This document shows positions 15,962-33,700 of a stretch of DNA of 43,857 nucleotides, piece after piece. The position numbers were made by a program, and so were the translations under genes. Origin of the DNA: an uncultured Bacteroidales bacterium (lineage in GTDB: Bacteria > Bacteroidota > Bacteroidia > Bacteroidales > Paludibacteraceae); assembly GCA_902771935.1 (NCBI GenBank), contig CACXYM010000014.1, positions 1 to 43,857 of the forward strand, read 5' to 3'. Under the pieces are notes generated by a model. The model was not told the origin of the DNA. It worked only from the letters and a program-made list of their open reading frames with translations, and ran no database searches. Positions within the stretch are counted from its first letter, which is position 1. Each line of letters opens with the position of its first letter.

Positions 15962-18900
15962 ATGTTAGGAAAAACTATACACAGTAAGCCATTACTATCT
16001 CCTGTTTTAACAGTCATTTTTATGTTGTTTGTGCAAACTGTTTTTGCCCAGACTTCTATATCCGTTCCGTATACTTTTAGTTTTGAGGAAGAAGAAAATA
16101 CTGAACTTGAAAATTGGGTATTTAATCCGGGCGTTAGAACGGATACATTGAAAGATCAATGGGTAGTCGGAACTGCAGTCCACAGTGAAGGGCGTCGTGC
16201 TGCGTATATATCGTGCAATAAAGGAGTTGATGCTAACTTTGATGTAACGACCAATATTCAGTATCTGTACCGTGACTTCGTATTACCTGCCGGACAATAT
16301 GATTGTACATTTGATATCCGTTGTATTGGTGCTCCGGAAGCTTTGATCTCTGCCGGTGTAGCTCCTGCTACTGCTATACAAACTGTTGGTGGGCCTACTT
16401 TTGTATATCCGACAAATCTAGAAACGTATATTCCGTCTTCTATGAAACGCGTCAACAATGTGTCGAAGTGGACCAATGTGTCGTTTCAATTTTCTTCTAA
16501 TGGAAGTCGCACATTACGACTATTCTTTATTTGGCAAAATGCTAATCGCGATAGCACAATGTCGGCTATCGGTGCCTGTGTCGATAATATTCAAATTACA
16601 TCTCGTGCTTGTGGAAAACCGCGCTCTATCTATGCTGAATCACGAAATGACTCAGTCATTATTACATGGGAAGGCAGCAGCGAAGAATATGTATTGGAAT
16701 TTCGTAAGTATGGTCGTTCCAAATGGCAAGTGACAACAGGAATACTAGGTAAGCAATATATCCTTGAGGGATTGGAGGAAGGTGCTTATGACTTCCGCGT
16801 ACGCGGTGTTTGTAATGGCACAGATTTCAGCGCATATACCTATCTGAACACGTTTGCGGTTTACTACCCGGAAAACCACTGTATAGACTATGTACATTTG
16901 GAGGATAATCCTAATGTAATTGCTACGTACGGAACGTACTCCAATCCGTACGAACAGGTCGGCGTAGTGGATTTTGGACCTGACGATAAGTTATCTCGCC
17001 ACACAGTGAACTGGGAACCAGATCGTACCGATCCCCGTACCAGAGGTAAACTGCGCGTTGTTCCTGATGGTGCCTTGGCTTCTGTTCGTTTAGGAAACTG
17101 GAGCCTCGGTGCGGAAGCAGAGAGTGTCTCGTATAAATATGTCGTGGACGCAGAGAATGCTGCTATTCTGCTTGTTCGTTATGCGGTTGTACTGGAGGAT
17201 CCGCAACATGATATGAAGAGTCAACCGCGTTTTACATTGGAGATTTTCGGTGAAGATGGAGAATTGATTAGTCCTACTTGCGGATATGCGGATTTCTATG
17301 CAGATGCTTCGCGTGAAGGATGGCATACAGAAGGATCGGGTTACAACCAAGTGACATGGAAAGATTGGACTACTATCGGACTTAATCTGGAAGAACGAGA
17401 TGGCGAAGAACTGACAGTTCGTTTAACAACATACGATTGCGCTTGGTCTGGCCACTATGGCTATGCGTATTTCACGCTCGACTGCGCGGCTGCACGAATT
17501 GTTGGAACAAGCTGCGGTGATGATGCGCAAATGTCTATCTCTGCACCGATCGGCTTCGATTATGAATGGTTTGATAAATATGACAACCCGGTTCCGAGTT
17601 CTAAATTAGCGGATAGCGGTATGACGTTATTAGTTGACGCATCGGACACTACTACGTATCGGTGCCACCTTAGCTACAAAGAGGAACAATCGTGCGGATT
17701 TGACCTCTATTCGTCCGCACGGCCTCGATTCCCTATCGCCGATTTTGATTATAAATACGAACCGGCGAACTGCCAAAACCGTGTGCGTTTTATCAATAAG
17801 AGTCATATTCTAACGAAATATAATAACGTAGAAGAGCATCATTACGACCAGCCATGCGATGAGTATGAGTGGACTTTCGGAGATGTTGGCCAAGGGTCTG
17901 ATAGAAACCCGATATTCATCTTCCCTAACGAAGGTGGAACATATCGCATAACCCTCACTGCTTTGATCGCGGAAGGACGTTGTTCGGATGAAACAGAAAT
18001 GGTAATCACTATTCCTGCTATTAAAGATAAAGCTTTGGTGGTTGATACTGCTATTTGTGAAGGTAGTTATGTGGTGTTTGGCCGCTATTATGCCGGAGTA
18101 GATGGAGTATATACGGATAGCTTCAAAACGGTCGCAGGATGTGATAGTATCGTTTCGCTGCATTTAAAAGTAAATCCTGTTACCAATAAATACGTGGGCG
18201 ATACAACTGTCTGTGCGGAAACACCATTAGTCATTGACGGACAAGCATATAAAGGCCATGAGTCCGGTAAATTCTATCGCTTCTATACGAATGCGTATGG
18301 GTGTGATTCGACGCTATGGATGAACGTGACAGTTATGGACTCCATCCTCCCGGAAGTAACAACACGCGTTCTCGAGGAAAAAGATGCATTCGGAACTATC
18401 TATGTGGATGGTAAAGGTTTCGACTACTACACCGTTAATGGCGGAGAACCGACTTTGGCTGATTCGTTGTATGACCTCGCAGGAGGTACATATGTACTGG
18501 AGTTCTTCAATGACTTCGGGTGCTCTGCTGAGCGTACTGTCCAAATAAGTACCTGCTTACCTGGATGCGTGTTCCAACGCTGGAATAACGTCTTGTCGCT
18601 CAAAGACTCTGCTTTCGTCGACAATGCTGTGGACTATCAGTTCACAGACTTCCAATGGTACAAAGAAGATGTGCCTATTGAAGGAGCTAATAAATCCTAT
18701 CTCTATGTCGAAGAGGGACTTGAAATAGGAGCTCGCTATACATTGCGCATGAAACGTGTTTCTAACGGAGAAGAAGTTGAGACATGCTCATATATTCCTA
18801 AAGCCCTAGAGGAAATGGATAAGGTGGTCGTATATCCGTCACCCGTTCGTGTAGGACAAACGCTCACTGTTAAATCCAATAAAGCCGGTAGTGCTGCTTT

Positions 18901-19048
18901 CGTTAGTATGATTGGCGAAACAGTGCAGACAAACGCCTTCGGACAAGGAACAAGTTCTATCCCAGCTCCTTCTCTAGCAGGGGTATATGTGGTTAAAGTA
19001 ACAATTGACGGCAAAATCCAAACATGCCGAATTACTGTAATAGAGTAG
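15962..19048 (+). CDS. T9SS-tailed surface protein with PKD domain, cassette copy 1
   Basis: From the ATG at 15962 (preceded by AAAAAGGA) the product is 1028 residues. A signal peptide ends at about 30 (FMLFVQTVFAQ, before TSIS). Following are a MAM-like/choice-of-anchor J-type domain (about 35-215), an Fn3-like unit (220-295), a large beta-rich region from CIDYVHL near 307, a PKD-like domain at about 620-680 (YEWTFGD), and two CEGSY...GCDSIVSL-type repeats near 695-790. It ends in a classical T9SS type A sorting tail from about 956 (VVVYPSPVRVGQTLTVKS, GVYVVKV, CRITVIE). It is clearly paralogous to the gene at 20794: CIDY, the ASVRLG strand, WKDWT, YAYFTLDC, CGxDxx, and RFPxAxxxxxxxxxNCQN occur in the same order. 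The barrel gene follows after 12 nt. Confidence 0.88.
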   Translation: MLGKTIHSKPLLSPVLTVIFMLFVQTVFAQTSISVPYTFSFEEEENTELENWVFNPGVRTDTLKDQWVVGTAVHSEGRRAAYISCNKGVDANFDVTTNIQYLYRDFVLPAGQYDCTFDIRCIGAPEALISAGVAPATAIQTVGGPTFVYPTNLETYIPSSMKRVNNVSKWTNVSFQFSSNGSRTLRLFFIWQNANRDSTMSAIGACVDNIQITSRACGKPRSIYAESRNDSVIITWEGSSEEYVLEFRKYGRSKWQVTTGILGKQYILEGLEEGAYDFRVRGVCNGTDFSAYTYLNTFAVYYPENHCIDYVHLEDNPNVIATYGTYSNPYEQVGVVDFGPDDKLSRHTVNWEPDRTDPRTRGKLRVVPDGALASVRLGNWSLGAEAESVSYKYVVDAENAAILLVRYAVVLEDPQHDMKSQPRFTLEIFGEDGELISPTCGYADFYADASREGWHTEGSGYNQVTWKDWTTIGLNLEERDGEELTVRLTTYDCAWSGHYGYAYFTLDCAAARIVGTSCGDDAQMSISAPIGFDYEWFDKYDNPVPSSKLADSGMTLLVDASDTTTYRCHLSYKEEQSCGFDLYSSARPRFPIADFDYKYEPANCQNRVRFINKSHILTKYNNVEEHHYDQPCDEYEWTFGDVGQGSDRNPIFIFPNEGGTYRITLTALIAEGRCSDETEMVITIPAIKDKALVVDTAICEGSYVVFGRYYAGVDGVYTDSFKTVAGCDSIVSLHLKVNPVTNKYVGDTTVCAETPLVIDGQAYKGHESGKFYRFYTNAYGCDSTLWMNVTVMDSILPEVTTRVLEEKDAFGTIYVDGKGFDYYTVNGGEPTLADSLYDLAGGTYVLEFFNDFGCSAERTVQISTCLPGCVFQRWNNVLSLKDSAFVDNAVDYQFTDFQWYKEDVPIEGANKSYLYVEEGLEIGARYTLRMKRVSNGEEVETCSYIPKALEEMDKVVVYPSPVRVGQTLTVKSNKAGSAAFVSMIGETVQTNAFGQGTSSIPAPSLAGVYVVKVTIDGKIQTCRITVIE

Positions 19049-19060
19049 GAGCATATCGTT

Positions 19061-20794
19061 ATGAAACAACTGAGGTTATATTCATTGATATTGTTCCTGC
19101 TCAGCTCTATTATTCTTACGGCAGGAAACAAGGATATCCACCATGTGGCTATGTGGGGTGGCGTTGGCTATTCCGGACTGGTTAATCATTCAGATAACGC
19201 AAAATTCATTGGCGGAGGTGGCGGATTGATAGGTGTCGGATACGAATACCATTGGCAGCAACTCATGCTCAGTGTGGGACCGGAGTTCCGTATCTTCTCA
19301 TCCAGAGATAATGTGACATTCCCCTATACCTATGATGTAAATAGAATAGTGGACGGCGCTGCACAAACCAAACACTATACGTTTGGCCCCGAGTTCCATG
19401 AAAACCATGTGATAGGACAAATAGCATTGCCTGTCTTAATCGGTGCGCAGTTCAACTATGTCTACTTCTTGGCAGGAGTTAAACTTGGATATACCGTATT
19501 AGGCTCGTATAGTCAGAGCGGCACGCTTACTACATCCCTTACGGACGAGATGGCATACGATCCGGAGTGGATTAATATGCCCAACCATGGATTGCTCAGC
19601 GACCAAGACTATTCTTCTAAAGGCAAAAATAACTATGGCTTTGATGCTACGCTCTCTGCTGAGGTGGGTGTTAACTTGAACCCATTCTTGAGTTCTGCAT
19701 GGAACAAGGCAAACGAAAAAGCAGAACGTCCTTGGCGAATGAGAGTAGCCGTCTTCCTTGACTATGGATTAAAGAACCTCTCTGTTTCGGAGAATGCACC
19801 GATGGCGCAGCCTGACGAAAACGAAATGACAACAATTTCGCTCCATCGCTCCGATTGGGCTACATCACGACTCAATAGCTTGTTGGTAGGTGTTAAGTTT
19901 ACAGCACTGTTGCAGATGAATAAGCCTAAAAAAGAGCGTCCTGCACTGCCTAAGGCATTCTTCCATACTTATGACCAACAGACCAATACGGGTCTCGCTG
20001 CTACACAGCTTGTCATTACCTATGACGATCCTAAACGCCGTCCGACTCGCCGTACCACGAACTCCAAGGGTATTACTTACCAAGGTCTTGCACTCGGCCA
20101 TTATACAGTCCAAGCAAGTCATGAGGGATACTACGACACAAAAGCGCTTGATTTTGATCATCAAGAGGAAGGCGATACCTTGCATATAGCACTTAAGCCG
20201 TATCCGCCGTTTACTTATACTGTCCTTGAGGATAGCACAAATAACTTATTGGCTTCTAAGGTTTCGTTTACTCCTCTTAGCGGTGGTGATGTGATTACGG
20301 CTGCAACCGATACAATTGAGACAGCTAACACAATTACTCTGCCATTCGGTAAAATCTTCGTTGTGCGCGTTGAGGCTGCAAACCACTTCGCTGTTGTAGA
20401 TACAATTAAGAACCTAAGTGATACAAAGACATATCATCTTCGTGCGTTCGAGAAGAAGAAACCGATTATCTTGCATAATCTCTTCTTCGCTACTAACGAG
20501 ACTAAGATCCTTCCACAATCTGAACCGGGGCTGCAAGACTTGTACACTATCCTCAACGAGAACCCGAAGATACGTATCCGTATCACTGGTCATACGGATA
20601 ATGTAGGTAACGACCGTGATAACCAAATTCTGTCTGAAGGTCGTGCTCAAAGTGTAAGACAAGAAATGATAGACCGCGGAATCAGCCCGTCACGTATTGA
20701 GGCTGAAGGAAAGGGCGAGACGATGCCTATCGACACCAATGACACCGAGGAAGGACGTCAAAACAACCGCCGCGTAGAGTTTGTAGTATTGTAA
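19061..20794 (+). CDS. Outer-membrane beta-barrel protein with OmpA C-terminal domain
   Basis: The 577-residue product has a signal peptide (about 1-22), then an 8-to-12-strand-like barrel region to about residue 290 (GGGGLIGVGYEYHWQQLMLSV, PVLIGAQFNYVYFLAGVKLG, RLNSLLVGVKFTALLQM). Next comes a carboxypeptidase-regulatory/CNA-B-like segment at about 305-375 (TRRTTNSKGITYQGLALGHY) and a linker. The OmpA-like peptidoglycan-binding domain covers about 465-577 (ILHNLFFATNETKILP, GHTDNVGNDRDNQILSEGRA with G510-N514, and NNRRVEFVVL). Barrel plus OmpA domain implies an outer-membrane protein tethered to the wall. Its stop TAA overlaps the next ATG by one base (TAATG), so translation is coupled. Partner function with the adjacent T9SS substrates is inferred. 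Confidence 0.87.
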   Translation: MKQLRLYSLILFLLSSIILTAGNKDIHHVAMWGGVGYSGLVNHSDNAKFIGGGGGLIGVGYEYHWQQLMLSVGPEFRIFSSRDNVTFPYTYDVNRIVDGAAQTKHYTFGPEFHENHVIGQIALPVLIGAQFNYVYFLAGVKLGYTVLGSYSQSGTLTTSLTDEMAYDPEWINMPNHGLLSDQDYSSKGKNNYGFDATLSAEVGVNLNPFLSSAWNKANEKAERPWRMRVAVFLDYGLKNLSVSENAPMAQPDENEMTTISLHRSDWATSRLNSLLVGVKFTALLQMNKPKKERPALPKAFFHTYDQQTNTGLAATQLVITYDDPKRRPTRRTTNSKGITYQGLALGHYTVQASHEGYYDTKALDFDHQEEGDTLHIALKPYPPFTYTVLEDSTNNLLASKVSFTPLSGGDVITAATDTIETANTITLPFGKIFVVRVEAANHFAVVDTIKNLSDTKTYHLRAFEKKKPIILHNLFFATNETKILPQSEPGLQDLYTILNENPKIRIRITGHTDNVGNDRDNQILSEGRAQSVRQEMIDRGISPSRIEAEGKGETMPIDTNDTEEGRQNNRRVEFVVL

Positions 20795-23781
20795 TGAGTT
20801 ATAGTAAATACATATTATCCTTTGTACTCTTTGCTTTGTCCCTTTGCTCTTTGAAAGCACAGGTTATCTATAAATGCGACTTTGAAGATGAGGCGGAGCG
20901 TAATCAGTGGGTGCTTAATACCGGAAATCAAGGACCAAAATGTGATAATAAATGGTTCATCGGCGAAGCAGGCAACCATGCGCCGGATGCTCAATACGGA
21001 TTGTTCATTTCTTCTGACGGAATAGAACCTGTTTATAGCGCCAACCGAACGATGTTCGTCGTTTCGTATCGGGAACTGACAATTCCTGCGGGAGATTATG
21101 ATTTCTTTTTTGATTGGCGCTGCAGTGGCAAACGTACAGGTGAAGAAGGTTTCTATATCCTCTGGGTACCGGTTTCAGAAACTACCAATTCGAATATGGC
21201 GACAGCGGATCTACCTGCTTGGGCAAAAGATGAAAACTACCAATTGGCGGGTTGTTTCTATGGCGCTACTTCTTGGGATATTGGTCATATAGAATGGACG
21301 TTAGAGGAAGAACAAACACGCAAACTCGTGTTCGTCTGGTATAGCACACGTGGAGGTGCTGCTAACCCTTCGGCTTGTATAGACAATATTGAAATCGTGA
21401 CAAAAGGAAGTTGTCCTCTCCCATCCAATTTCAAGACCAAAATTAATAATGATGCCAGCGCAACGATTGAGTGGAGTAAGAACGGAGCTACGGTGTTTGA
21501 TATGCGATCATACGACTATCAAACAGGTGAATGGCATGCTGAGACCGATTTGACACTACCGCGTGTTACCTTATATAATCTTTCCGAAGGATTCCATGAC
21601 GTATATGTTCGTACACACTGCTCGGATGGGGAGGGCGTAGGTCAGTATGTTAAATATAGTTTCTTTATGTTCCATAAAGGAGAACGTTGTATAGATTACT
21701 TGGATCTGACAACAGCCACATGTCGTGTTGGTGATAAAACAAATCCGTTAGGAAAACCACAAGTTGTGGATTATGGCTATGCTGATTATGCGAATTCTTT
21801 GCATACGCTCCATTATGTTCCTGGTGAAAAAGATCCTTATACGGATGGAACATTAAACACGAAACCGGATGACGCTATAGCTTCTGTACGATTAGGACGA
21901 TATGCTCCTACTTTTGGCGCAGCATGCGAATATAAATACAAAGTGCCGGATGGGGACAAGGCGATTCTCAAAGTGAAGTATGCTGTTGTCTTACCTGCTC
22001 CGCACGAACCGCAGGATAACCCAACTTTCAAACTCGAAATCCTGGCGAATAATATGGCCTTAGAGCATGGGTGCGGTTTGGTGAACTTTATCGCTTCACC
22101 ATCTACTACCAGTGGCTGGAAATCTACTACATACGGTGGCGAACTGATAACGTGGAAAGACTGGACTGAAACAGCTGTCAACCTCCGTGATTATGTAGGT
22201 AAAACAATTACAATCCGACTAATGATTACGGGATGCCAAATGGAAGCACATGGTGCCTATGCTTATTTCACGCTTGATTGTGAATCAGGCGAAATGTCTG
22301 GGCTAAACTGCGGAGAGGATAATCCAACGACTACATTTACCGCTCCTTCAGGATTTAAATATGAATGGTATTTACCGAAAAAACCTGGTGAAATACTATC
22401 ACGAAATCAAACATTTACCATCGACCCGATGGATACGTGTACGTACTATGTGGATGTGATTTCTCAAGCTAATAGCAAATGTTATTATACATTGGAAGCT
22501 TGCGGTATTCCGCGTTTCCCTGTCGCAGAAGCACAGGCTTCTTCACGCGTAGTTAATTGCCAAAACGAGGTAACCTTCCATAATACATCTGGTGTTTATT
22601 ATAAAAACCAAGTAAATGAGCAAGAATATACGCACAATGAAGGAGTCGATCACGTATTATGGGATTTTGGTGATGGAACACAATCTACTTTGGCCGATGA
22701 ATATATAACCCATATTTATCCGGATACGGGAGGAGTTTATATAGCTACCTTATATGCTTATCTTAACGGAAACGATTCTGTATGCCGCGCCATGAAGCAG
22801 ATACGTATTGAACTCAAAGACGTCGGCTTGCCTGAACGTGAAGAACATCTTTCTGTCGGCTCTATGTATGGTGGTAAGGTTTATTGGAATGAGTATCAGT
22901 TTGATACGCTCTATACCAAGGATGGATGCGAGGAATTGGTGCATGTGTATATCCATGAACGTTATTTTGAACAAAAGGATACAATGTGTCAAGGCGGTTC
23001 GTATAAAGTGGGAGATCAGGTGTTCACACAAACAGGAACATACGTCGTTAATCTAAAGAATAAATGGAATTTAGATAGTATTGTAACGCTGTATCTTGAT
23101 GTAGAACCTAATCTCATTGTCACATTGCCTGATACCATATCAGTTTGTGGGGATGCTTCTGTAGTAATCTTCCCTATGGAAGTAAAAGAAGGTCGTCTTG
23201 ATAATGTTTATGTAAAATTCTTGTCATATGCGGTAACGGCTGGTTTTGATGAAGAATATAAATTCTCTCCAAACGAAGAGAAAGTAGTGGAACTACCGCA
23301 AGACATAGTTCCTGGATATTATCAAGCAGTGCTCCGGTTCGGTACACCGCGATGTCCTGCGCCGGACGTTCCTGTCGTATTACAAGTGCTCTATCCGTCC
23401 TCTATTATAGCCCAAAAAGAAGGTATCATCGCTCTGCTCAATGATCGTTATAATGGTGGTTATAAATTCGATGCCTATACTTGGTATAGAAATGGACAAC
23501 GTATAGATGGTGCAACAGAATCATATCTTATCGTAGGTAAATCTGACCTTGACGCAGAATATAATGCTGTATTGACCCGTTCGTCAGACGGAGTGACAAT
23601 AGCAACATGCCCGATTATTTATAATGGAGGTGTACAAGCAATAGAAAACACGTGGAGTCCAACGTATGGAGAATGGATTCTGTACGACATAATGGGACGC
23701 AAAGTAAAACATCCTATGCCGGGTGTATATGTCGGTTTAAATCCCACAACGCATAAAACAGCTAAAATCGTGATAAGATGA
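20794..23781 (+). CDS. T9SS-type surface protein with PKD domain, cassette copy 2
   Basis: The 995-residue product has a signal peptide at 1-22 (MSYSKYILSFVLFALSLCSLKA). It parallels the 15962 product along its length: an N-terminal MAM-like domain, an Fn3-like unit, a CIDYLDL-initiated beta region from about 298, YAYFTLDC, CGEDNPTTTFTAPSGFKYEWY, RFPVAEAQ and NCQNEVTFHN, then a PKD domain at about 615-675 (WDFGDGTQSTLADEYITHIY). One NLDSIVTLYLDV-type repeat follows. The tail is shorter and more divergent than a standard T9SS type A tail but keeps YDIMGRKV, PGVYVGL and a final KIVIR. Start and stop both overlap their neighbours (TAATG upstream, ATGA downstream), placing it firmly in the operon. 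Confidence 0.86.
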   Translation: MSYSKYILSFVLFALSLCSLKAQVIYKCDFEDEAERNQWVLNTGNQGPKCDNKWFIGEAGNHAPDAQYGLFISSDGIEPVYSANRTMFVVSYRELTIPAGDYDFFFDWRCSGKRTGEEGFYILWVPVSETTNSNMATADLPAWAKDENYQLAGCFYGATSWDIGHIEWTLEEEQTRKLVFVWYSTRGGAANPSACIDNIEIVTKGSCPLPSNFKTKINNDASATIEWSKNGATVFDMRSYDYQTGEWHAETDLTLPRVTLYNLSEGFHDVYVRTHCSDGEGVGQYVKYSFFMFHKGERCIDYLDLTTATCRVGDKTNPLGKPQVVDYGYADYANSLHTLHYVPGEKDPYTDGTLNTKPDDAIASVRLGRYAPTFGAACEYKYKVPDGDKAILKVKYAVVLPAPHEPQDNPTFKLEILANNMALEHGCGLVNFIASPSTTSGWKSTTYGGELITWKDWTETAVNLRDYVGKTITIRLMITGCQMEAHGAYAYFTLDCESGEMSGLNCGEDNPTTTFTAPSGFKYEWYLPKKPGEILSRNQTFTIDPMDTCTYYVDVISQANSKCYYTLEACGIPRFPVAEAQASSRVVNCQNEVTFHNTSGVYYKNQVNEQEYTHNEGVDHVLWDFGDGTQSTLADEYITHIYPDTGGVYIATLYAYLNGNDSVCRAMKQIRIELKDVGLPEREEHLSVGSMYGGKVYWNEYQFDTLYTKDGCEELVHVYIHERYFEQKDTMCQGGSYKVGDQVFTQTGTYVVNLKNKWNLDSIVTLYLDVEPNLIVTLPDTISVCGDASVVIFPMEVKEGRLDNVYVKFLSYAVTAGFDEEYKFSPNEEKVVELPQDIVPGYYQAVLRFGTPRCPAPDVPVVLQVLYPSSIIAQKEGIIALLNDRYNGGYKFDAYTWYRNGQRIDGATESYLIVGKSDLDAEYNAVLTRSSDGVTIATCPIIYNGGVQAIENTWSPTYGEWILYDIMGRKVKHPMPGVYVGLNPTTHKTAKIVIR

Positions 23782-24701
23782 AAACGCGTATAACGACAAT
23801 ATGTTTATGCTTACTGCTCGTGCTTGGTGCATCAGCAGCGCCGCGTTATAGAAAATCGTCTGTCTCGCATTGGCTCGGATGGAGTATCACCGGCATGGAA
23901 GCAAATGCTTTTGCAGCATCTAGATTGCCAATCGAAATGCTTGCCGGTGGAGGTGGGCAATTCCATCTGCAATATGAGCTCCACAAAGGCGGATTCTTCT
24001 TTAATCTCGGTTTCGGGGCTGATTATATGCTTACCCAATTAGCAATCCCTTCCTATTCCAACGAATTCAAGAGAGTGGACTATACCGGTGAACGAGTGTT
24101 ATATCGCTATTGCTATGCAGATTATAAAGAGCAACAACGTCAAGTGCGCCTTGTCGTGCCTATTCAGTTTGGATACCAATTCGGCGAATGGCTCTATCTT
24201 GGTGTAGGGGCTGCTTTTCGTGTACAACCACTCCTTAATACTTTTAGCACGCGTACGCGTATGTTGACAGAAGGAGAATATGACCGATTTATTCAACCGA
24301 TTCGTAACGCACCGGATTATGGCTATTGGACGGAGGATGAATATAGAGGTTCAGGTAAAGTAAAGTCTGCGACAAACGAAGTGGCTGTAGAGGTAGAAAT
24401 TGGCGCCCGTATTCCTACTCCTGCGAAGTGGTTCAATCTGCGAATAGGTGCGTTTGTCGGGTATGATTTTCCTCTTGGTAGCTTTAAGAGCCGAAACGAG
24501 ACACCTCTTGTCGATTATTCTGCAATTGATGTTAATCCATCTACGCAATCAATCGCTAACCTGCAAGAGAATATTCGTTTCAATAGTATATTGGATGCAA
24601 ATATAGTAAGCGCTTCCGCACAACGTCTTCGTGTCGGATTACGATTGACAATGTTGTTTGATGTAACAACCGAGCGAAAACATTGTATGTGTAATAAGTA
24701 G
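23778..24701 (+). CDS. Outer-membrane beta-barrel protein, cassette copy 2
   Basis: The 307-residue product begins at an ATG overlapping the previous stop (ATGA). A signal peptide ends at about residue 20 (VLGASAAPRY). The rest is a barrel with alternating strands and aromatic girdles (GGGGQFHLQYELHKGGFFFN, VRLVVPIQFGYQFGEWLYLG, VEVEIGARI, RLRVGLRLTMLFDV). The order of motifs matches the barrel half of the 19061 product (GGGG strand, PVLIGAQF vs PIQFGYQF, NYGFDATLSAEVGVNL vs NEVAVEVEIGARI), but the OmpA domain is absent. Paralogy is judged by eye. It may be the outer-membrane partner of the preceding surface protein. Confidence 0.78.
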   Translation: MKTRITTICLCLLLVLGASAAPRYRKSSVSHWLGWSITGMEANAFAASRLPIEMLAGGGGQFHLQYELHKGGFFFNLGFGADYMLTQLAIPSYSNEFKRVDYTGERVLYRYCYADYKEQQRQVRLVVPIQFGYQFGEWLYLGVGAAFRVQPLLNTFSTRTRMLTEGEYDRFIQPIRNAPDYGYWTEDEYRGSGKVKSATNEVAVEVEIGARIPTPAKWFNLRIGAFVGYDFPLGSFKSRNETPLVDYSAIDVNPSTQSIANLQENIRFNSILDANIVSASAQRLRVGLRLTMLFDVTTERKHCMCNK

Positions 24702-24778
24702 TATATATCTATCCGTTGGTAAAAAAAACTCTATTAAGAGAGTCTGTTAATATAATTAAAAATTAAATGTTTAACGTT

Positions 24779-27700
24779 ATGAGAAAAACTTTATTCTCTG
24801 CGCTGCTAATGATTTTTATATCTGTTGCAGCGTTTGCAGCCAAGGAGGATCTCTATGTGCTGCATGCTGATTTTGAGGAAAGTACTTCTTTGCCTGAAGG
24901 CTGGACGATGGAGTCCGTCTTTGGTGACCAATCATGGGTGATTGAGCAAGGCGAAGATTTAATCTATCCCGCAGGATCGGCACAAGGTAAGGGGCGTATT
25001 GCGCTACGGAACACCACAACGCAAACGCAACGTTTTGTAACGCGACTCATCACCCCGGCTATGGATCTGTCGGAACTGACCGCACAACCTATGCTGATTT
25101 TTTCGCATGCTCAACCGCAGCGTGCAGGGGATGTGGATGTGTTACGTGTTTATTATCGTACCGCACTGGACGGTAGATGGGTACAGATTGCTCAGTATGA
25201 CAAAAAAGTCACAAACTGGCAAGCTGATACACTCTATCTTGATGGGTACAACACCAAAACCTATCAGATCGCTTTTGAAGGTGAAGATCGTTTTGGTCGA
25301 GGCATCGTCTTGGATGAAATTATTGTTCGTCCGGATATCGTATGCGAAGATGCGCGTGATATTCGAGTGAACTCACTATCCGGTAAAGATGCTGTGATTG
25401 AATGGGGTGGTAGCTTGGATACTGACTCGTTTGAAGTGGTTGTTTCTAAGGTACAACTGAATTCGGAAGAAGATATCGCAACGGTTAATCCTAAAGATAT
25501 CATTGTTCATACTTTCGTATCCGATTTCCAAATATCCCTTAATAAATTGGAGATTAATACAAAGTATTATATCTATATCAAGGCCTATTGCCCGAGTTTG
25601 GAAGGTCAGTGGGTCGGCGGCTTAATCAAGACGCTCAACAAAGTACAATTGCCGTTCGTAGAGCATTTTGATGCTCCGTATAACAAGGACAATCCTTCTC
25701 AGGCTCCGAACTGGACGTATGGTACGAGCATGCGTGAGGATGACGGTGTGACGATGAGGGCACTTCCATATCTTACCAACTATCGTACGGAGAGTTTGTG
25801 GAAGAACTATTCGCCTAACGCTACTCCTGCCTTAGAATTCGCTGCGGCTATCAATGCGAAGGCTCTCCCGGCTGGAGAGTATGCATACGCTGCTTCGCCG
25901 GAGATAGATATCGACCGCATTCAAGATGCCTACGTGGACTTCTGGGGAACATCCTATCTCTATGATAGAGAATCCACCGAGCATTATGCTTCTGGTATTA
26001 TTGTCGGAGTCATGGACAACCCAGCGGATTATTCGACGTTTGTGCCGGTAGATACATGCTATGCAATCAACAAATACAAGTTTGATTTCTTCCGCGTTAA
26101 GTTTGATAAATATACCGGAAATGGTAAGTATATTGCTCTTGTTGCTGATTTTGACGAGCAATTGCTTTTCTTTGTGGACGAAGTTACTATAGGCTCCCTG
26201 AAAGAAGTTGCTCGACCCGTGGATATCAAGGTTAAAGATTTTACTCCTACTACTATAGTAGTCGAGCCTACGCTCATTAATGCTACATCTTGGAATCTCA
26301 TAGTATCGGATGTAAAAACGGAAAATGTAGATAAACTCAAACCGGCTAACATCCTTGCTAAGTATGAGAACATTCCTATTTCTATTAAGGACACCTTGGT
26401 AGCACTTACCAATATGGAAGGTAAGTGGATTCGCGTTTATGTACAAGCAATTAATGGAGAAAAGAAAAGCGAATGGTCATATGCTCAGAAGTACATGATG
26501 CCAAACTCTTTGGCCTCTACGGCATTACCTAAGACCTGGGATTTTGAGACTAAACCGACCTATAGTTACGAGGAGATTTGGGATTATACCAGTCAAAATC
26601 CCAGTACATCGGGGTACTTGGTAGATGGTATAATCTCGCATGTATTCCACTATGCTGACGGTTATCGAAACGGTTCGACCGAAACCACTGCGCATGGTGG
26701 CAGTTATTCGTATCACCTCAATAAGCGTAATAGTTTTAGCCCATATGCCGTATTCCCGCAATTGGATAGTGTGCAGAACAAAATGTTCACGTTCTTCTAC
26801 AAAGACGGTATGGGTTCCGGTTATTCGCAGCCTTATTATCAAGTAGGTGTCATGACCGACCCGCAAGATACCGCAACGTTTGAACTCATCAAAGAGTATA
26901 ACGATGCTCAAGATGGCACTTGGAGGAAAGGTGAAGTCATCTTCTTGAATTACAAGGGCGACGCACGTTATATTGCTATCCGTTTGGTAGACGGCCCGAA
27001 TACAATTAAGGGCAAAACGGCTTACGGAAATATTGATGATGTCACGATTTCTGCTTTTGACGGTTGCATCAAGCCGCTGAATGTGGAGGCTGTTGCCGAA
27101 GACAGTGCAATCACCATCAAGTGGGATGCAAATGGTATGACCAAATGGGCAGTGGCCGTTTCGGAGAACTGGGAGAACCAGGAGCTCTATATCCGCGATA
27201 CGGTTAATACCAACCAGATTACCATTAAGAATCTGAAGCCTCATACTGTTTATACCTATCAGATCACGACACTGGTGGATGCCAAGAAAGCACCGTCTGA
27301 TATCTTTACGGTAAAGACCCAGTGCACTGCGTATGAGTTGATACCGTATAAGGAGGGCTTCGAGGATGCTCCGACCAATACATCGTTGCCTGAGGTTCCG
27401 AACTGCTGGACGATTCCGCAGATTAAATACTCTTCAAGTAGTTCGTCAGGCGGAAGTTCCACCTATTATTATCCGCACGCATACAATAGTAGCAGTTCCG
27501 CTCATAGTGGAAACATATACTTGCAACTGGGTTATTCGTCTATCAAAGACTCAATGTATGCCGCACTACCTCGTTTGGAGAAAGACCTGAGATTGCTTCA
27601 AATGTCGTTCTTTATCCGTGGTATCAGTTCGTATGTGAACGATACATTGTATGTGGGTGTAATGTCCGACCCGAATGACATCAAGACCTTTGATACCGTA

Positions 27701-30700
27701 TATACCTTCACGGTAACCGGTATGGACTATAAGGAACATATCGTTAACCTGTCTTCGTATGCAGGTCAAGGTAACTATTTGGCTTTCTACAAGCCTTATA
27801 CAAATCACTATTACATGATTGATGATGTAGAAGTGAAAGAATTACCTGAGTGCGAAAAGGTATTTGATATTAAGGTTAAGGGCATTCACGACCGTGGTGC
27901 TATCTTCTCGTGGTATAAGAAAGATGCTACCAAATGGCAATTTGTTGTAGCAACAAAGAAGGACCTGTCCGCAGAGCAACTCGCAGCTCCGGATGCCAGT
28001 ATCGTGATGGATAGCCTCATTGAAGTAAATCCGTTCGCTTTGGATGACGATGTTATTGAGGCAAACAAGCAGTACTACGCATACATCCGTGCCGTCTGCG
28101 ATGGCGCAAATTACGGCGATTGGTCAGCTCCGGCAGCCTTCAAGACCGTTTGTACCGCACGCGGTATTGATGATTTTGGTGGTTCGGGCAAGGTAGAAGA
28201 CTTCTCGCAATCCAGCACAGCTGATTGTTGGAAATTCGGTGACCGCGTAGGTTCCGGAATCCATAATATCCTGAATGGTCACATCCAGCTTATTAATAGT
28301 TCCGCTTCTACCGATGGTGCATATGCTATCGCTCGTAAATTGAGCATCGATAGCCTCCAATATCTGCAAGTGACCTTCGACGCATGGAACAGCACGGCTT
28401 CGTATCCGCTCAATGAGGTAACGGTAGGTATTATCACGAATCCGGAAGATCTCTCCACCTTCGTGCCCCTGGATGTAATCAAATTCAAGATGGCCGCCGA
28501 TGCGGATGATCACGAAGCATATACCGTTCGTTTTAACGAGTATATGGGCGACTACAACGATGAGTACGGCCAGTTCGTAATGTTCATCTCCGAGTCTGGC
28601 GAGAACAGCAACAAGATAGAGTTGGATAATATCTATTTTGACTCCATCTCTGCTTATCTTGAGCCGTTGGATATCTGGTCAGATTCGATAGGCGCCGATG
28701 CTATTAAGATTCATTGGGAGAACACCAAGGCAGACAGTTATGAGTATATCTTCTCTGATAAACTCAGCACGCTGGATGCGGCTACTCCTGTGGCACTGGC
28801 TGCTGATTCGGCTTTGCTTACCGGACTTGGAATGCTCAAGACCTATTATGTAAAGGTTCGCGCTAAATACGGTGAGAACTATAGTAAATGGTCCAACTGG
28901 CGTAAGTTCACGACGGAATGTCCGGCATCCCGTCCTATTCCATGGGCTGAGAACTTCGATAGTTATACATCTGCTTCGTCCAAAAACGCTCCTGAGTGCT
29001 GGGGAGCATTCGGCAGCGATGGTACGGTAGGGGCCGATTGTATCACACCGACTGTTTATTCTTCTGCTAAGAAAGACGGTAAGAACGGATTGTATATCGG
29101 TGGTTCCAAGACCGTTGCTTCTTACACCATACTTCCGCGCTTCGATGCCGACCTGTCTAAGGCAATCCTTGCATTTGAATACAAACTCCATACATATAGT
29201 TCTTATGAGGATTCTCTCTGGATTGGTGTAGCCAAGAATGTTGAAAATCTGGATTCTCTGCTTAACTCTATTACTTGGATTGATCAAATGGTAGAGAAAC
29301 GCACCACTTCTGCTGCGAACGTATGGACGAAGTATCAAAAGAAATTAGAAGGTGCTGGAGATGCTCAATACATCGTCTTGAAAGCAAAATCGACCTACAT
29401 TACCTATTCTACTTCTACCAAGTATGGTTTCTATATTGACAATATGTCCGTAGAGCCGGAGGCAAGTTGTAATAAGCCGGAAGCTCCCGTGGCTGTTCTT
29501 CGTGACTTGAACGGACTAGGCTTCAGCTGGACGGATACGATTGCTTCTAACTGGGATGCTGTAGCACTTCCGAAAGGTGATGCTCCGGATGAGAACACAA
29601 CTCCTGCCGTTACGGTTGATACGACTTATGCGTTCATTTCCGGTTTGCAACCCAAGACGGAATATGACTTGTATGTACGTGCTAACTGCGGTGCTGGTGA
29701 TGTCAGCTACTGGGTTGGTCCGGTTACAATGAAGACTCTTAGCGCTGCCGCTTATCCGTTCTTCACGGACTTTGAGGCAGAGCCGACAGAGATGACTCCG
29801 GGTAATAGCACCAGTTATAAGATCCACGAAGGCTGGGTATCCGGTCTTGGTAAGGGAACCTCTGCATCATACTATCCGTATGTTAAACAAGACCCGACAG
29901 CGGCCACGGCAGTTTATGCAAACTCGTATTATCACGATGAAACTCACTCACGTGCATTGTATTTCCAGGCTAATGGAACTAACGATAGCGCATTCATCGT
30001 TCTTCCTGCTTTGTATGATAACGTAGCTAACGCGGAAGTTAATCTGGATACTGTTCAGGTTCGTTTCCAAGCACGTAAGATGTCTTCCGGTATCGGAACG
30101 AAGGACAAACAGATTCCTAACATCCTGCCTAACGGTGCTATTGTTACGGGTGATCCTTCTTCACGTCATCAAAAAGTGACGAATGCGCGTGTTATCCAAA
30201 TTGGTATAATGAGTAATCCTATGGATTTGAAGAGCTTCCAATTATTGGATGCCTTTGAGTTGGCACCGGTTCTCTCCGCAGCAGATACTATCTATACGGA
30301 CGAAGATCCGCGTGGTAACAGTTGGTGGGAGGAGATTTCTGTACCGCTGGCAGGTGCTAAAGGTAAGTATATTGCTCTCATGTATTCCGCAAGTGCTTCT
30401 AACGATTTTTACATTGACAACTTCTATGTAGAAAAAGCAGTTGGTCTGTATGCTCCGAATGCAGTGAAGGGTGTGGCTTCGTCGAAGAACTCGATTACCA
30501 TTACTTGGACGAATCGTTTCAATGCTCCGAAGGTAGATGTTGGTTATGTGGCAGCCGGAGGCGCTTTGAGCGAATTGACGATTGTTACAACCGACAAAGA
30601 CACGCTGGAGATCACCGGTTTGGATAGCAACAAGCAATATGACTTCTACGTCCGTGCCAACGATGGAGCAGGTAAGACCTCTAATTGGTCCGCCGGAACC

Positions 30701-33700
30701 ATTCTTGCTACGCGTTATGTAGTGAATCTCGCTGATGCTTCATGGGACTTCGATAGAAAGAATAACTACGTATCTCCTAATACTGGTAACTTGTTGCCGC
30801 TTGGCTGGATCGTAGGCAGCAAGTATGCTACGAGCACTTCTTATATTCCGAAGTTGCAGTTCAATACGGTTAATACGACAACGTTGGCTGTTACTACGGC
30901 ATTTGGTCGTCAGAAAGTAGCTCGCAACGGTGCGTTGTATATCCAGTCGTTAGTATCCTCGACTAATAATAGCGATGGTGCGTATGCTATTATGCCGCTG
31001 ATTAACGGTAACCTCGAAGACAAGGAACTGCATTTCTGGGCACGTTTGTGCGGTATGACTATTTCCAGCGGAAATGCAACTTCTGTTACTAGTGCTACAT
31101 ACGCAACAGCGGCTTATCCGCGTGCTATCAAGGTCGGTTATGTAACCGCCCCGGATGATATCGAGTCCTTCGTTGAATTGGCAGATATCCAATTGCCGGC
31201 TTTGAGTAGCAGCTCAGCTAAAGCATCCGAAGATGCGTCCGGTAATGAGTTCTGGAATGAAATCTCTGTTCCGTTGAAGGGTATCGGTGAAGGTAAGTAT
31301 ATTGCATTCCTCTCTGAGTACGGCAACAGCAATGCTATCTATATCGACCAGATCAGTTTCCGTGATGCTGGTAGTGTATGCCACACTCCGAACCGTCTGA
31401 CGCAAGATTCGCTCGGTGCGCATGCTGCTAAATTCTCATGGCAACTCGGTGAAGGTCAATGGGCCATCCTGCTTTCAACGACCAAGAATACGGCGCAAGT
31501 CATCCGTGATACCGTTAACTCTCGTGTATACAGCAATGATACGCTCCTTGCGAATACTTCCTATATCTTCAAGGTTAAGAAAGTATGTAGCGAAACAGAA
31601 GAGAGTGCTGAAGTATCGATTGAGTTCACTACCGATTGTGATCCGTACGACAAGGAGCACGCAACATGGAGCTTCTCGGATAAATTGGTAGACCAGAAAG
31701 CTGGTACCTCGACGGTTAAGATTCCTGAATGCTGGACATCAGCTCTTAATGTAGGAACCTCTTATTCGTACTTCCCGCAAGCAGCTCCGAACACGTTATC
31801 TGTTATCTTGGCAAAGGAAGCTACGAAAGCAACCAGCGATCGTGCTTTGCAGTTCTATACCACAACATCGAACTACAATGCATATGCAGTATTGCCGCCG
31901 CTGGATGTTAATCGTGATAGTACGATCCTCCATTTCTTCGGTCGTGCAGCAAGATTTAATAAGACGTTCAATAGCTCCAACAAGACCTTCTTGAATGCCA
32001 TTAACAATGGTTATCTGCGTAAGTTGGTTGTTGGTACAATGAGCGATCCGAACAATTTAGCGACCTTCGTTGCCGTTGATACCATTTCATATGACCACGT
32101 ATGGTCCGTATTGAGAGAGAGCAACCTGACGCAGGATTCGCTCGACGCCAACAACTATTATTGGCAAGAGTACATCTTGGATCTCAAGAACTACAAGGGT
32201 GGTGAGTATATTGCCTTCTTGGCTCCGAAGCCTGAAGCTACAAGTTACTTCTACATCGATGAACTCTCTATCATGGATGCTGAGACATGTACCGAGATTA
32301 GTTCAGTTACTCTCAGTGATGTCACCAAGACGTCGGCTACTATCAACTGGACCATTCCGCAAGGCGTAGAGAACTTCTACCTCGAGGTAAGTACGGATAA
32401 GGAATTCAAGGATACGACCAAGTTTATTGTTCGTGATACGATTCAAACACTGACCTATACTTTGAATAATCTGAAGCCGGCTACTGAGTACTTCGCTCGC
32501 ATTAAGCATATCTGCTCTGAGCAAAAGCAATCTGAGTTCGCTGAGAAGTCGTTCACTACACTCTATGCAATTCGCTTCACCGAGCAATTCACAGAGCAAC
32601 GTTCGATTCCGGCTAACTGGTCGTTGTATAACTACAAGGATATGCAACCTACCAACACCAATAGCTGGGAGCGCAAATCCAGTCCTGATGATGATAATAT
32701 GTACGGCCCGTACATGTCATCGTATATCATGGGTAGTTGGAAGCGCTGGTTGGCAACTCCGCAGATTGATCTCTCGGATATCGCTGCTGCTGACAGTATC
32801 GCCCTGTCCTTCGACTTGGCGACCACCAACAAGAACCTCGCTCAAGAAGATAGCGTGTTCTTCCTCGTTCTTATCTCTACCGACGGCGGTTTGACCTATC
32901 CGGAAGAGAATAGAACCGTTTGGGGTACCACCGCGGACTGCGATTATCCGTTCAGCGCTATCTCGAATAAGAAGAAAGGTACACGCTGGTTCATTGATCT
33001 GAGCAAGTATAACGGTCAAGTAATCCGCATTATGTTCGGTACAGATGTAACGCAACTAAAAGGTTCGACCGGTTATATCTACCTTGATAACGTTCAACTC
33101 AACTATTACACCAAGTCTGCAAATGAGGCATCAGTATGTCAATGGACTGATTATGCAGACAATGACTTTACTATTGATGCAGATAACCTTAATGTGGGTA
33201 AGACTACGGTGTATGAGAAGTTCACGCAGAATGTCAAAGAAAACGAGAAAGATAAACTGGCTCGTTTGACTCTGACTGTCACTCCGATGGTTGAAGAGTT
33301 TATCAATGCTACTATCTGCGAAGGAACTTCTTATATGGAAAGTAACTTCGAGATTGAAAAACCGAAATCCGGAACTTACCGTCAGAAACTGCAAGGTACT
33401 AATACTTGTGACTCAATTGTTACGTTGAATCTTACTGTACTCAACAAACAGTTTGAGAACGTAGAGAAGACAATCTGCCAGGGTACGTATTTCGAATTCA
33501 ATGGTGAGAAGTATTATACGAATACCATTGTTTCCGATACCTTGACCGGTTCGAACGGTTGTGATAGTATCGTAACGCTCTACCTGACGGTTAATCCGAT
33601 CTTGGTAGGCGAGATGGAAGAGGTATTCCTCTGCCCGGGTGTAACTTACAACTTCTCCGAGAAATATCCGGAGTTGTCTGCAGATGGCATCTATAAAGAT

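What the first reader, a model, noticed from the sequence alone, without database searches (positions are those of the whole stretch)
15962..24701. Tandem duplicated cassette: T9SS surface protein plus outer-membrane barrel, in one coupled operon
Seen: four genes with gaps of 12, -1 and -4 nt. Genes 1 and 3 are paralogous along their length (CIDY, ASVRLG, WKDWT, YAYFTLDC, RFP, NCQN, PKD in the same order), and genes 2 and 4 share barrel motifs in the same order (GGGG strand, PV/PI-FG strand, C-terminal RL.VG strand). Established knowledge: in gliding Flavobacterium, the T9SS substrate SprB depends on the adjacent outer-membrane protein SprF. Inference: each surface protein has a dedicated barrel that secretes, caps or anchors it, and the pair was duplicated. 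I do not recognise these barrels as SprF/PorP family, so this may be an undescribed substrate-barrel pairing.
Basis: partly seen in the sequence, partly recalled or inferred. Interest (0 to 1): 0.72.

Follow-up and report, generated by a model that had tools for sequence, protein, structure and literature searches.

The report
Surface proteins paired with membrane anchors
A gut bacterium carries a conserved four-gene set in which two secreted surface proteins are each paired with a small outer-membrane barrel, and the two barrels appear to be fastened inside the cell in two different ways, one to the cell wall and one probably to a moving secretion ring.

Summary
The four coupled genes are real (gaps 12, -1, -4). 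Genes 1 and 3 are paralogous surface proteins; gene 1 has a type A T9SS tail. Genes 2 and 4 carry homologous barrels (hhalign 99.9%) that match neither PorP/SprF nor PorG models. Gene 4 models as an 8-stranded barrel.

Gene 2 continues into an OmpA domain; gene 4 ends in a twin-cysteine tail (CMC), as SprF and PorG do. Among 114 dereplicated relatives, 70 of 81 barrels without OmpA have this tail and 0 of 33 with OmpA do. The host has its own PorG, and its PorK keeps the reactive cysteine.

The order surface protein / OmpA barrel / surface protein / Cys barrel recurs in 19 of 77 related loci. In barrel-only surveys of order and phylum, 42 of 45 upstream neighbours have type A tails, against 2 of 100 control ORFs.

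Best reading: each barrel is a dedicated anchor for its neighbour's product, held by the cell wall (OmpA) or by a disulfide to the PorK/GldK ring (Cys). The pairing is well supported; contact and disulfide are inferred. A new variant of the SprB-SprF kind.

The parts
15962..19048 (+). gene 1: 1028-aa surface protein; PKD-like domain, C-terminal type A T9SS sorting domain
   Evidence: ORF; TIGR04183 28.1 bits, cut-off 23; aligned with the corresponding genes of 4 other genomes' cassettes
19061..20794 (+). gene 2: 577-aa protein = outer-membrane barrel + carboxypeptidase-regulatory-like stretch (weak) + OmpA domain; no cysteine
   Evidence: barrel homologous to gene 4
19061..19933 (+). barrel domain of gene 2
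   Evidence: barrel profile match, G000:C14:19061-19933 (the profile contains this sequence)
20483..20770 (+). OmpA (peptidoglycan-binding type) domain of gene 2, residues 475-570
   Evidence: PF00691 E 3.9e-22, full length 1-98/98
20794..23781 (+). gene 3: 995-aa surface protein, paralogue of gene 1; predicted string of beta-sandwich domains
   Evidence: model pLDDT 82.4, pTM 0.54, Foldseek to Ig/FnIII-type proteins; no family model for the tail
23778..24701 (+). gene 4: 307-aa outer-membrane barrel with twin-cysteine tail
24684..24692 (+). Cys303-Met-Cys305 motif of gene 4
   Evidence: both Cys invariant in the 5 aligned gene 4 orthologues
24767..34219 (+). neighbour, possible fifth member: 3150-aa FnIII/MAM surface protein 65 nt downstream; a long ORF follows gene 4 in all 4 other cassettes compared

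Best explanation
Each barrel is the dedicated outer-membrane partner of the T9SS-exported surface protein encoded next to it. The surface protein crosses the outer membrane through the T9SS and is then held at the surface by the barrel (inferred). The barrel's periplasmic end decides what it is tied to. The gene 2 type grips the cell wall through its OmpA domain, making a static mount (domain shown, binding inferred). The gene 4 type forms a disulfide through its twin-cysteine tail with the conserved cysteine of PorK/GldK, as SprF and PorG do, tying it to the motor-driven ring or track (motif and target cysteine shown, bond inferred). In this operon and its orthologues, two surface proteins and one barrel of each kind go together; elsewhere single pairs are common.
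For: Linkage: 42 of 45 upstream neighbours of barrels found by barrel alone (27 order loci from 16 families, 18 phylum loci, 17 of them from one genus) match TIGR04183, and 34 of 47 in the host family, against 2 of 100 non-neighbour ORFs of the same regions. Of 90 measured gaps 53 lie between -40 and +20 nt, 12 of them the 1- or 4-nt overlap. Cassette: 19 of 77 loci found by the surface proteins hold the order S-O-S-c. Either/or tails: 70 of 81 against 0 of 33, with the first Cys 10-11 residues after the last-strand pentapeptide in 54 of 66 measured. By parsimony tail type changes 16 times on a 156-barrel tree. Target: host PorK Cys329 aligns with Cys356 of a solved PorK chain (9mzu_A, 491 aa, taken to be P. 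gingivalis), the PorG-reactive residue (legend in PMC12635249). Precedent: SprF and PorG C-tail cysteines bond GldK; the static pair of Flavobacterium johnsoniae is encoded with a PorE homologue, and PorE binds peptidoglycan.
Against: No direct evidence of any barrel-surface protein contact or of a disulfide; no complex could be modelled. The tails next to these barrels are type A, which known work assigns to PorV and then to release or lipopolysaccharide attachment, so a further barrel anchor is not required. The either/or count is not independent: within the host family OmpA and Cys labels need only 2 changes on the tree. Outside that family the Cys tail is nearly absent (0 of 18 phylum loci, 1 of 27 order loci), although the pairing is there. 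The only phylum locus outside one genus (L213) has no T9SS tail upstream. 28 of 77 loci hold the surface proteins with no barrel, and 14 of 69 host-family barrels showed no long neighbour by my rule. The pairing of one OmpA with one Cys barrel is not general: 10 of 17 host-family regions with an OmpA barrel hold no other barrel.
Confidence: 0.5

Rival explanations
1. The barrels are true T9SS carriers, replacing PorV or PorP/SprF: they dock on the Sov/SprA translocon and pull their own substrate out.
For: Gene order substrate then barrel is the same as for type B substrates and their PorP/SprF carriers; overlapping genes fit a strict pair.
Against: Known carriers are described as 14-stranded FadL-type barrels; gene 4 models as an 8-stranded, OmpA-size barrel. 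Linked tails are the type that PorV handles.
Confidence: 0.15
2. The twin cysteines have another partner or none: barrels form disulfide-linked oligomers with other outer-membrane proteins, or the pair only closes a small loop.
For: Liu et al. note disulfide-linked OmpA oligomers in other Bacteroidota. The proteins of genes 1 and 3 hold 25 cysteines each.
Against: Position and CxC/CxxC form resemble the tails of SprF and PorG, and the host's own PorG ends in CKYC plus two residues. Gene 2 has no cysteine, so the two barrels cannot be bonded to each other.
Confidence: 0.2
3. The unit is a fixing device for the secretion ring: the OmpA barrel holds the wall, the Cys barrel holds the PorKN ring, and the surface proteins cap them, as proposed for PorE-PorP-PG1035.
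For: Among loci found by the surface proteins, 39 of 40 with an OmpA barrel also have one without. Gorasia et al. propose such a role for PorE-PorP.
Against: In barrel-found host-family regions the two kinds are mostly apart: 42 of 48 Cys barrels lie in regions without an OmpA barrel, and 10 of 17 regions with an OmpA barrel hold no other. This genome has three intact Cys barrels away from any OmpA barrel seen, plus one interrupted.
Confidence: 0.07
4. Co-transcription only: an unrelated outer-membrane protein happens to share an operon with a surface protein.
For: No physical contact has been shown; 28 of 77 loci have the surface proteins without barrels.
Against: Recurrence in 16 families of the order and one genus of another family with a control of 2 of 100.
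Confidence: 0.05

Closest known systems
SprB-SprF and other type B substrate / PorP-SprF pairs (Flavobacterium johnsoniae)
   Same: Long surface protein with its outer-membrane barrel gene directly downstream; SprF has a periplasmic Cys-x-Cys tail that bonds GldK; a static pair is encoded with a PorE homologue, mobile ones are not (PMC12635249, PMC12618676, PMC9143113, sections read)
   Different: Here the barrel models as 8-stranded, matches no PorP/SprF model, sits with type A tails, and the OmpA domain is fused to the barrel instead of being on a separate PorE
PorG
   Same: Predicted 8-stranded outer-membrane barrel with cysteine C-tail that bonds PorK/GldK
   Different: The host has a separate PorG gene next to bamA (L206); no sequence similarity found; PorG is a core secretion part, not known to be paired with a surface protein
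PorE-PorP-PG1035 complex
   Same: Surface protein, barrel and OmpA-type wall binding in one system
   Different: PorE is a lipoprotein with TPR and propeller domains, PorP is 14-stranded; gene 2 puts barrel and OmpA domain in one chain and has no cysteine for a lipid anchor
OMP_b-brl_2 / OmpA-type two-domain porins
   Same: 8-stranded barrel fold (modelled for gene 4), with C-terminal OmpA domain in gene 2
   Different: Pfam match weak and under cut-off (gene 2, 18.5 bits of 27); these barrels are tied to T9SS surface proteins

Membership tests
PorP/SprF | matches TIGR03519 / PF11751 | tested here: not met
   PF11751 not among the Pfam matches of genes 2 and 4; the gene 2 barrel and gene 4 match no NCBIfam family at E up to 10; 27 relatives none; the host's PorP gives 205 bits in the same library; hhalign to host PorP 0.5%
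PorP/SprF | 14-stranded FadL-type barrel | tested here: not met
   gene 4 model pLDDT 90.8; strands read as 8; best structural matches span 28-296 and are 8-stranded barrels; gene 2 was not modelled
PorP/SprF | gene next to a type B (TIGR04131) substrate | tested here: not met
   TIGR04131 is not among the 15 families matched by 45 upstream neighbours; TIGR04183 is, 42 of 45
PorP/SprF (SprF branch) | twin-cysteine periplasmic C-tail | tested here: met
   gene 4 Cys303, Cys305; not in gene 2
PorG | matches NF052316 | tested here: not met
   gene 2 barrel and gene 4 no match at E up to 10; 27 relatives none at E up to 0.01; the host PorG matches, E 1.3e-27, 96.9 bits, itself under the cut-off of 130
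PorG | 8-stranded barrel with cysteine C-tail | tested here: met
   gene 4 only
PorG | sequence homology to PorG | tested here: inconclusive
   hhalign 0.3% and 0.8% against one PorG sequence; no PorG alignment was available
PorG | required for all T9SS export | not testable with these tools
   needs mutants
PorE | C-terminal OmpA domain | tested here: met
   gene 2 PF00691 E 3.9e-22
PorE | lipoprotein with TPR and beta-propeller domains | tested here: not met
   gene 2 begins with a barrel and has no cysteine; best NF052230 stretch is residues 456-557, the OmpA part
T9SS type A substrate | TIGR04183 tail in gene 1 | tested here: met
   28.1 bits, cut-off 23; Pfam's PF18962 gives 15.5 bits, under its cut-off of 27
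T9SS type A substrate | TIGR04183 tail in gene 3 | tested here: inconclusive
   no match; orthologue L060 has a longer tail by eye
OMP_b-brl_2 (PF13568) | score over Pfam cut-off | tested here: inconclusive
   gene 2 18.5 of 27 bits, gene 4 none; 2 of 27 relatives at E <= 0.01

The most novel reading that the evidence does not exclude
Paludibacteraceae gut bacteria carry a second, separately evolved class of track-borne adhesin carriers: 8-stranded barrels with SprF/PorG-type twin-cysteine tails, bonded to PorK/GldK, carry T9SS adhesins along a GldJ-GldK-GldN track, while sister barrels with OmpA domains hold partner adhesins still. This genome has a GldJ homologue (TIGR03524, 340 bits, cut-off 458), and GldJ lies within a few kilobases of barrel loci in 4 of 60 host-family regions and 4 of 77 surface-protein loci, though not in this genome or two others checked.
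Probability: 0.18. Interest if true: 0.85.

Novelty: new variant of a known kind. Interest (0 to 1): 0.62.

Why it matters
The papers I read tie dedicated barrels to type B T9SS substrates. If these pairs work as proposed, many type A surface proteins of Bacteroidales, and some in another family of the class, also have their own anchor, and the choice between wall anchoring and ring or track anchoring can be read from the barrel's tail. It would add a barrel family to the short list of proteins (SprF, PorG) shown to be bonded to the PorK/GldK ring, and it makes the question testable with cysteine changes in one gene.

Tried and rejected
Considered and rejected: the barrels as PorP/SprF (no match, wrong strand number); as PorG copies (separate PorG found next to bamA); a recent local duplication (tree); a disulfide between gene 2 and gene 4 (gene 2 has no cysteine); a fixed one-OmpA-one-Cys complex as the general unit (10 of 17 host-family regions with an OmpA barrel hold no other barrel). 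The PF19573 (DUF6089) model as PorG, recalled from memory: no hit in the host and no control rang, so nothing is concluded. A Flavobacterium collinsii paper listed looked relevant by title but, from its abstract and passages, concerns other genes.

Led nowhere: PDB sequence search with gene 4 orthologues (none); PHROGs (none); Foldseek of gene 3 gave only generic Ig/FnIII-type matches. PorG or any other T9SS carrier did not appear among the fold matches shown for gene 4, which excludes nothing. GldJ next to the cassette was looked for in this genome and two others and not found. In the listings and passages of nine paper searches I saw no description of 8-stranded barrels paired with type A substrates, nor of twin-cysteine tails beyond SprF and PorG; these were capped listings, and most subscription papers and preprints are not held.

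Limits of counts: the phylum and order surveys scored only 5 candidates per genome, so 15 of 394 and 42 of 393 genomes (own included) are lower bounds. Loci were given for 30 of the 42 order genomes; I used 27 (leaving out the own genome and two of its genus; one of the 27 is another genus of the host family). All 18 non-own phylum loci were used, 17 from one genus, two of them near-copies. The 60 host-family regions are the best-scoring listed matches, not a random draw, and some of the same loci are among the 77. Gene calls are mechanical, stop to stop, so gaps depend on the start taken; the control ORFs (100 of 210 drawn at random) will include some that are not genes. On the 156-row tree two order barrels (L240, L243) were labelled OmpA by length alone; both trees are quick ones.
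Full report
What is there. The window lies in a 2.06 Mb draft genome in 46 contigs. Its closest named matches, by the surface proteins, are Paludibacteraceae and other Bacteroidales metagenome-assembled genomes, many with titles naming ruminants or other animals. That the host family is Paludibacteraceae is inferred, for instance from a contig of the same length in both collections under that name (L060 and L134). Gene 1 carries a type A T9SS tail over the NCBIfam cut-off, though not over Pfam's; gene 3 matches no tail model. Gene 2 is a barrel followed by a carboxypeptidase-regulatory-like stretch (PF13620 E 0.013, under cut-off) and a full OmpA domain (PF00691 E 3.9e-22). Gene 4 is a barrel that ends KHCMCNK.

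Paralogues in the same genome. Seven barrels are found, six of them strong because the profile was made from them, and one weak. All seven stand beside an ORF that I read as a surface protein: this cassette twice; a 2435-aa protein overlapping its barrel by 1-4 nt, depending on the start; a 2878-aa protein 26 nt after its barrel; and three places on contig C3, with partners of 556 aa, of 1789 aa, and one cut by the contig end. Four of the ten TIGR04183 matches in the genome are among these partners, so three partners, gene 3 included, are not matched by that model.

Recurrence. With the 6-row barrel profile, 95 of 150 genomes of the family, in 27 of 33 genera, have a match. I fetched 60 regions around the best listed matches; they hold 69 barrel ORFs, of which 17 carry OmpA, 48 a twin-cysteine tail and 4 neither. 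Of these 69, 47 have an upstream same-strand ORF of 300 aa or more within 300 nt, and 34 of the 47 match TIGR04183; the 13 others include short-tailed orthologues, barrels themselves and one release factor. A further 8 have a long ORF directly downstream, and 14 have neither, some of them at contig ends. Farther out, 42 of 393 genomes of the order and 15 of 394 of the phylum matched, counts that include the own genome and are lower bounds. Of the 27 order loci (16 families) and 18 phylum loci examined, 42 of 45 upstream neighbours match TIGR04183. Seventeen of the 18 phylum loci come from one genus of another family in the class; the eighteenth (L213) has no T9SS tail upstream. In a control of 100 non-neighbour ORFs drawn from 210 in the same regions, 2 match. 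So the linkage is not chance and not limited to the host family.

Either OmpA or twin cysteine. After dereplication at 70% identity, 114 barrels of the host family and the surface-protein loci were classed. Of 81 without OmpA, 70 end in a cysteine pair (41 C-x-C, 28 C-x-x-C, one not resolved), 2 have a single Cys and 9 none; of 33 with OmpA, none has the pair and 2 have a single Cys. Of the 11 exceptions two run off a contig, one has an interrupted frame (L018), one is a weak homologue (L019), six are small barrels of the second cassette type, and L071 is unexplained. In 54 of 66 measured cases the first Cys lies 10-11 residues after the conserved pentapeptide of the last strand. These counts are not independent: on a tree of 112 barrels OmpA and Cys need only two changes. 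On a wider quick tree of 156, tail type (OmpA, Cys, plain) needs 16 changes by parsimony, so tails have been exchanged repeatedly over the order and phylum. Against a universal rule, the Cys tail is absent from all 18 phylum loci and present in 1 of 27 order loci; there the barrels are plain or carry OmpA.

The cassette. I searched named genomes with the surface proteins only and got 77 loci. Writing S for the surface protein, O for an OmpA barrel, c for a Cys barrel and b for a plain one, the order S-O-S-c is found in 19 of 77 (13 exact, five within longer clusters, one with O and S fused in one frame), and b-O-S-S or c-O-S-S in 19. Of these 77, 40 have an OmpA barrel and 39 of the 40 also have a barrel without one; the exception is a 6.7 kb contig. 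In 28 of 77 only surface proteins are seen. The barrel-found host-family regions look different: of 17 with an OmpA barrel, 10 hold no other barrel, and 42 of 48 Cys barrels lie in regions without an OmpA barrel. So the pair of one surface protein and one barrel is the general unit, and the four-gene set is a special case. In the five genomes aligned in full, gene 2 orthologues keep the OmpA domain and gene 4 orthologues keep both cysteines.

How it may work. Liu et al. (PMC12635249; abstract, several Results sections, part of the Discussion and passages read) showed that the C-tail Cys-x-Cys of SprF, and that of the 8-stranded PorG, bond a single invariant cysteine of GldK, Cys343, and that the PorG-reactive residue of P. 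gingivalis PorK is Cys356. The host PorK Cys329 aligns with Cys356 of a solved 491-aa PorK chain (position counted by me from the printed alignment; the chain's organism is assumed). Paillat et al. (PMC12618676; abstract, Introduction, Discussion read) and Gorasia et al. (PMC9143113; abstract, Discussion read) describe type B substrates with PorP/SprF barrels and propose that they are static when linked to the wall-binding PorE, mobile when not. The window shows both options side by side in another barrel family: a barrel with its own OmpA domain, and a barrel with a SprF/PorG-type tail. I therefore propose a dedicated anchor per surface protein, tied to the wall in one case and to the PorK/GldK ring in the other. 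Shown: homology, linkage, order, tails, target cysteine. Inferred: contact of barrel and surface protein, peptidoglycan binding, the disulfide, and any movement.

Open points. Type A tails are known to use PorV and are then cleaved or released, so the barrel is more likely a later anchor than the carrier, but this was not tested. A GldJ homologue is present in this genome, below the model's cut-off, so a track rather than a closed ring is possible; GldJ lies within a few kilobases of barrels or of the cassette in 8 fetched loci, probably two ancestral arrangements, and not in this genome or two others checked. Whether these bacteria glide is unknown.

Verdict. The barrel family is not covered by the curated family models I searched. 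I rate it a new variant of a known kind, of good interest, with the disulfide step the part most in need of an experiment.

Noticed in passing
L118:1096-2712 (minus), G000:C2: A GldJ homologue (TIGR03524 340 bits, cut-off 458) in a gut Bacteroidales genome; its neighbours look by eye like folP and a diadenylate cyclase. Hints at a gliding-type track.
   Followed up: partly
L125, L128, L129, L132 (5' part); L079, L094, L099, L116: gldJ lies near the barrel loci: order gldJ-gcvH(by eye)-S-O-S-c read in L125, GldJ at a similar distance upstream in the other three; in the second group a CxxC barrel stands about 1.4 to 2.2 kb upstream of gldJ on the same strand.
   Followed up: partly
L018:608-1544: A further barrel of the genome has an interrupted reading frame; its cysteine tail is seen in another frame. 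Described only.
   Followed up: no
L124:6150-11015: In one relative the OmpA barrel and the following surface protein lie in one open frame of 1622 codons; real fusion or sequence error.
   Followed up: no
L017:752-1627: A second, divergent PorP/SprF-family gene (72 bits, cut-off 90.55) near the 2435-aa surface protein and its Cys barrel on contig C1.
   Followed up: no
window:24767-34219: A 3150-aa FnIII/MAM protein follows the cassette; its end resembles by eye the short T9SS tails reported in Prevotella intermedia (PMC11969387, passages read).
   Followed up: partly
window:12714-15809: A secreted protein whose GCVATAMAQ stretch recalls C10 cysteine peptidases (recalled, not tested), also with a short-type tail by eye.
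   Followed up: no
L144, L145, L151, L153, L164, L171, L172, L174, L182, L184: Candidatus Aphodosoma intestinipullorum contigs hold many copies of the surface protein family, often in tandem, with no barrel beside them by my profile.
   Followed up: no
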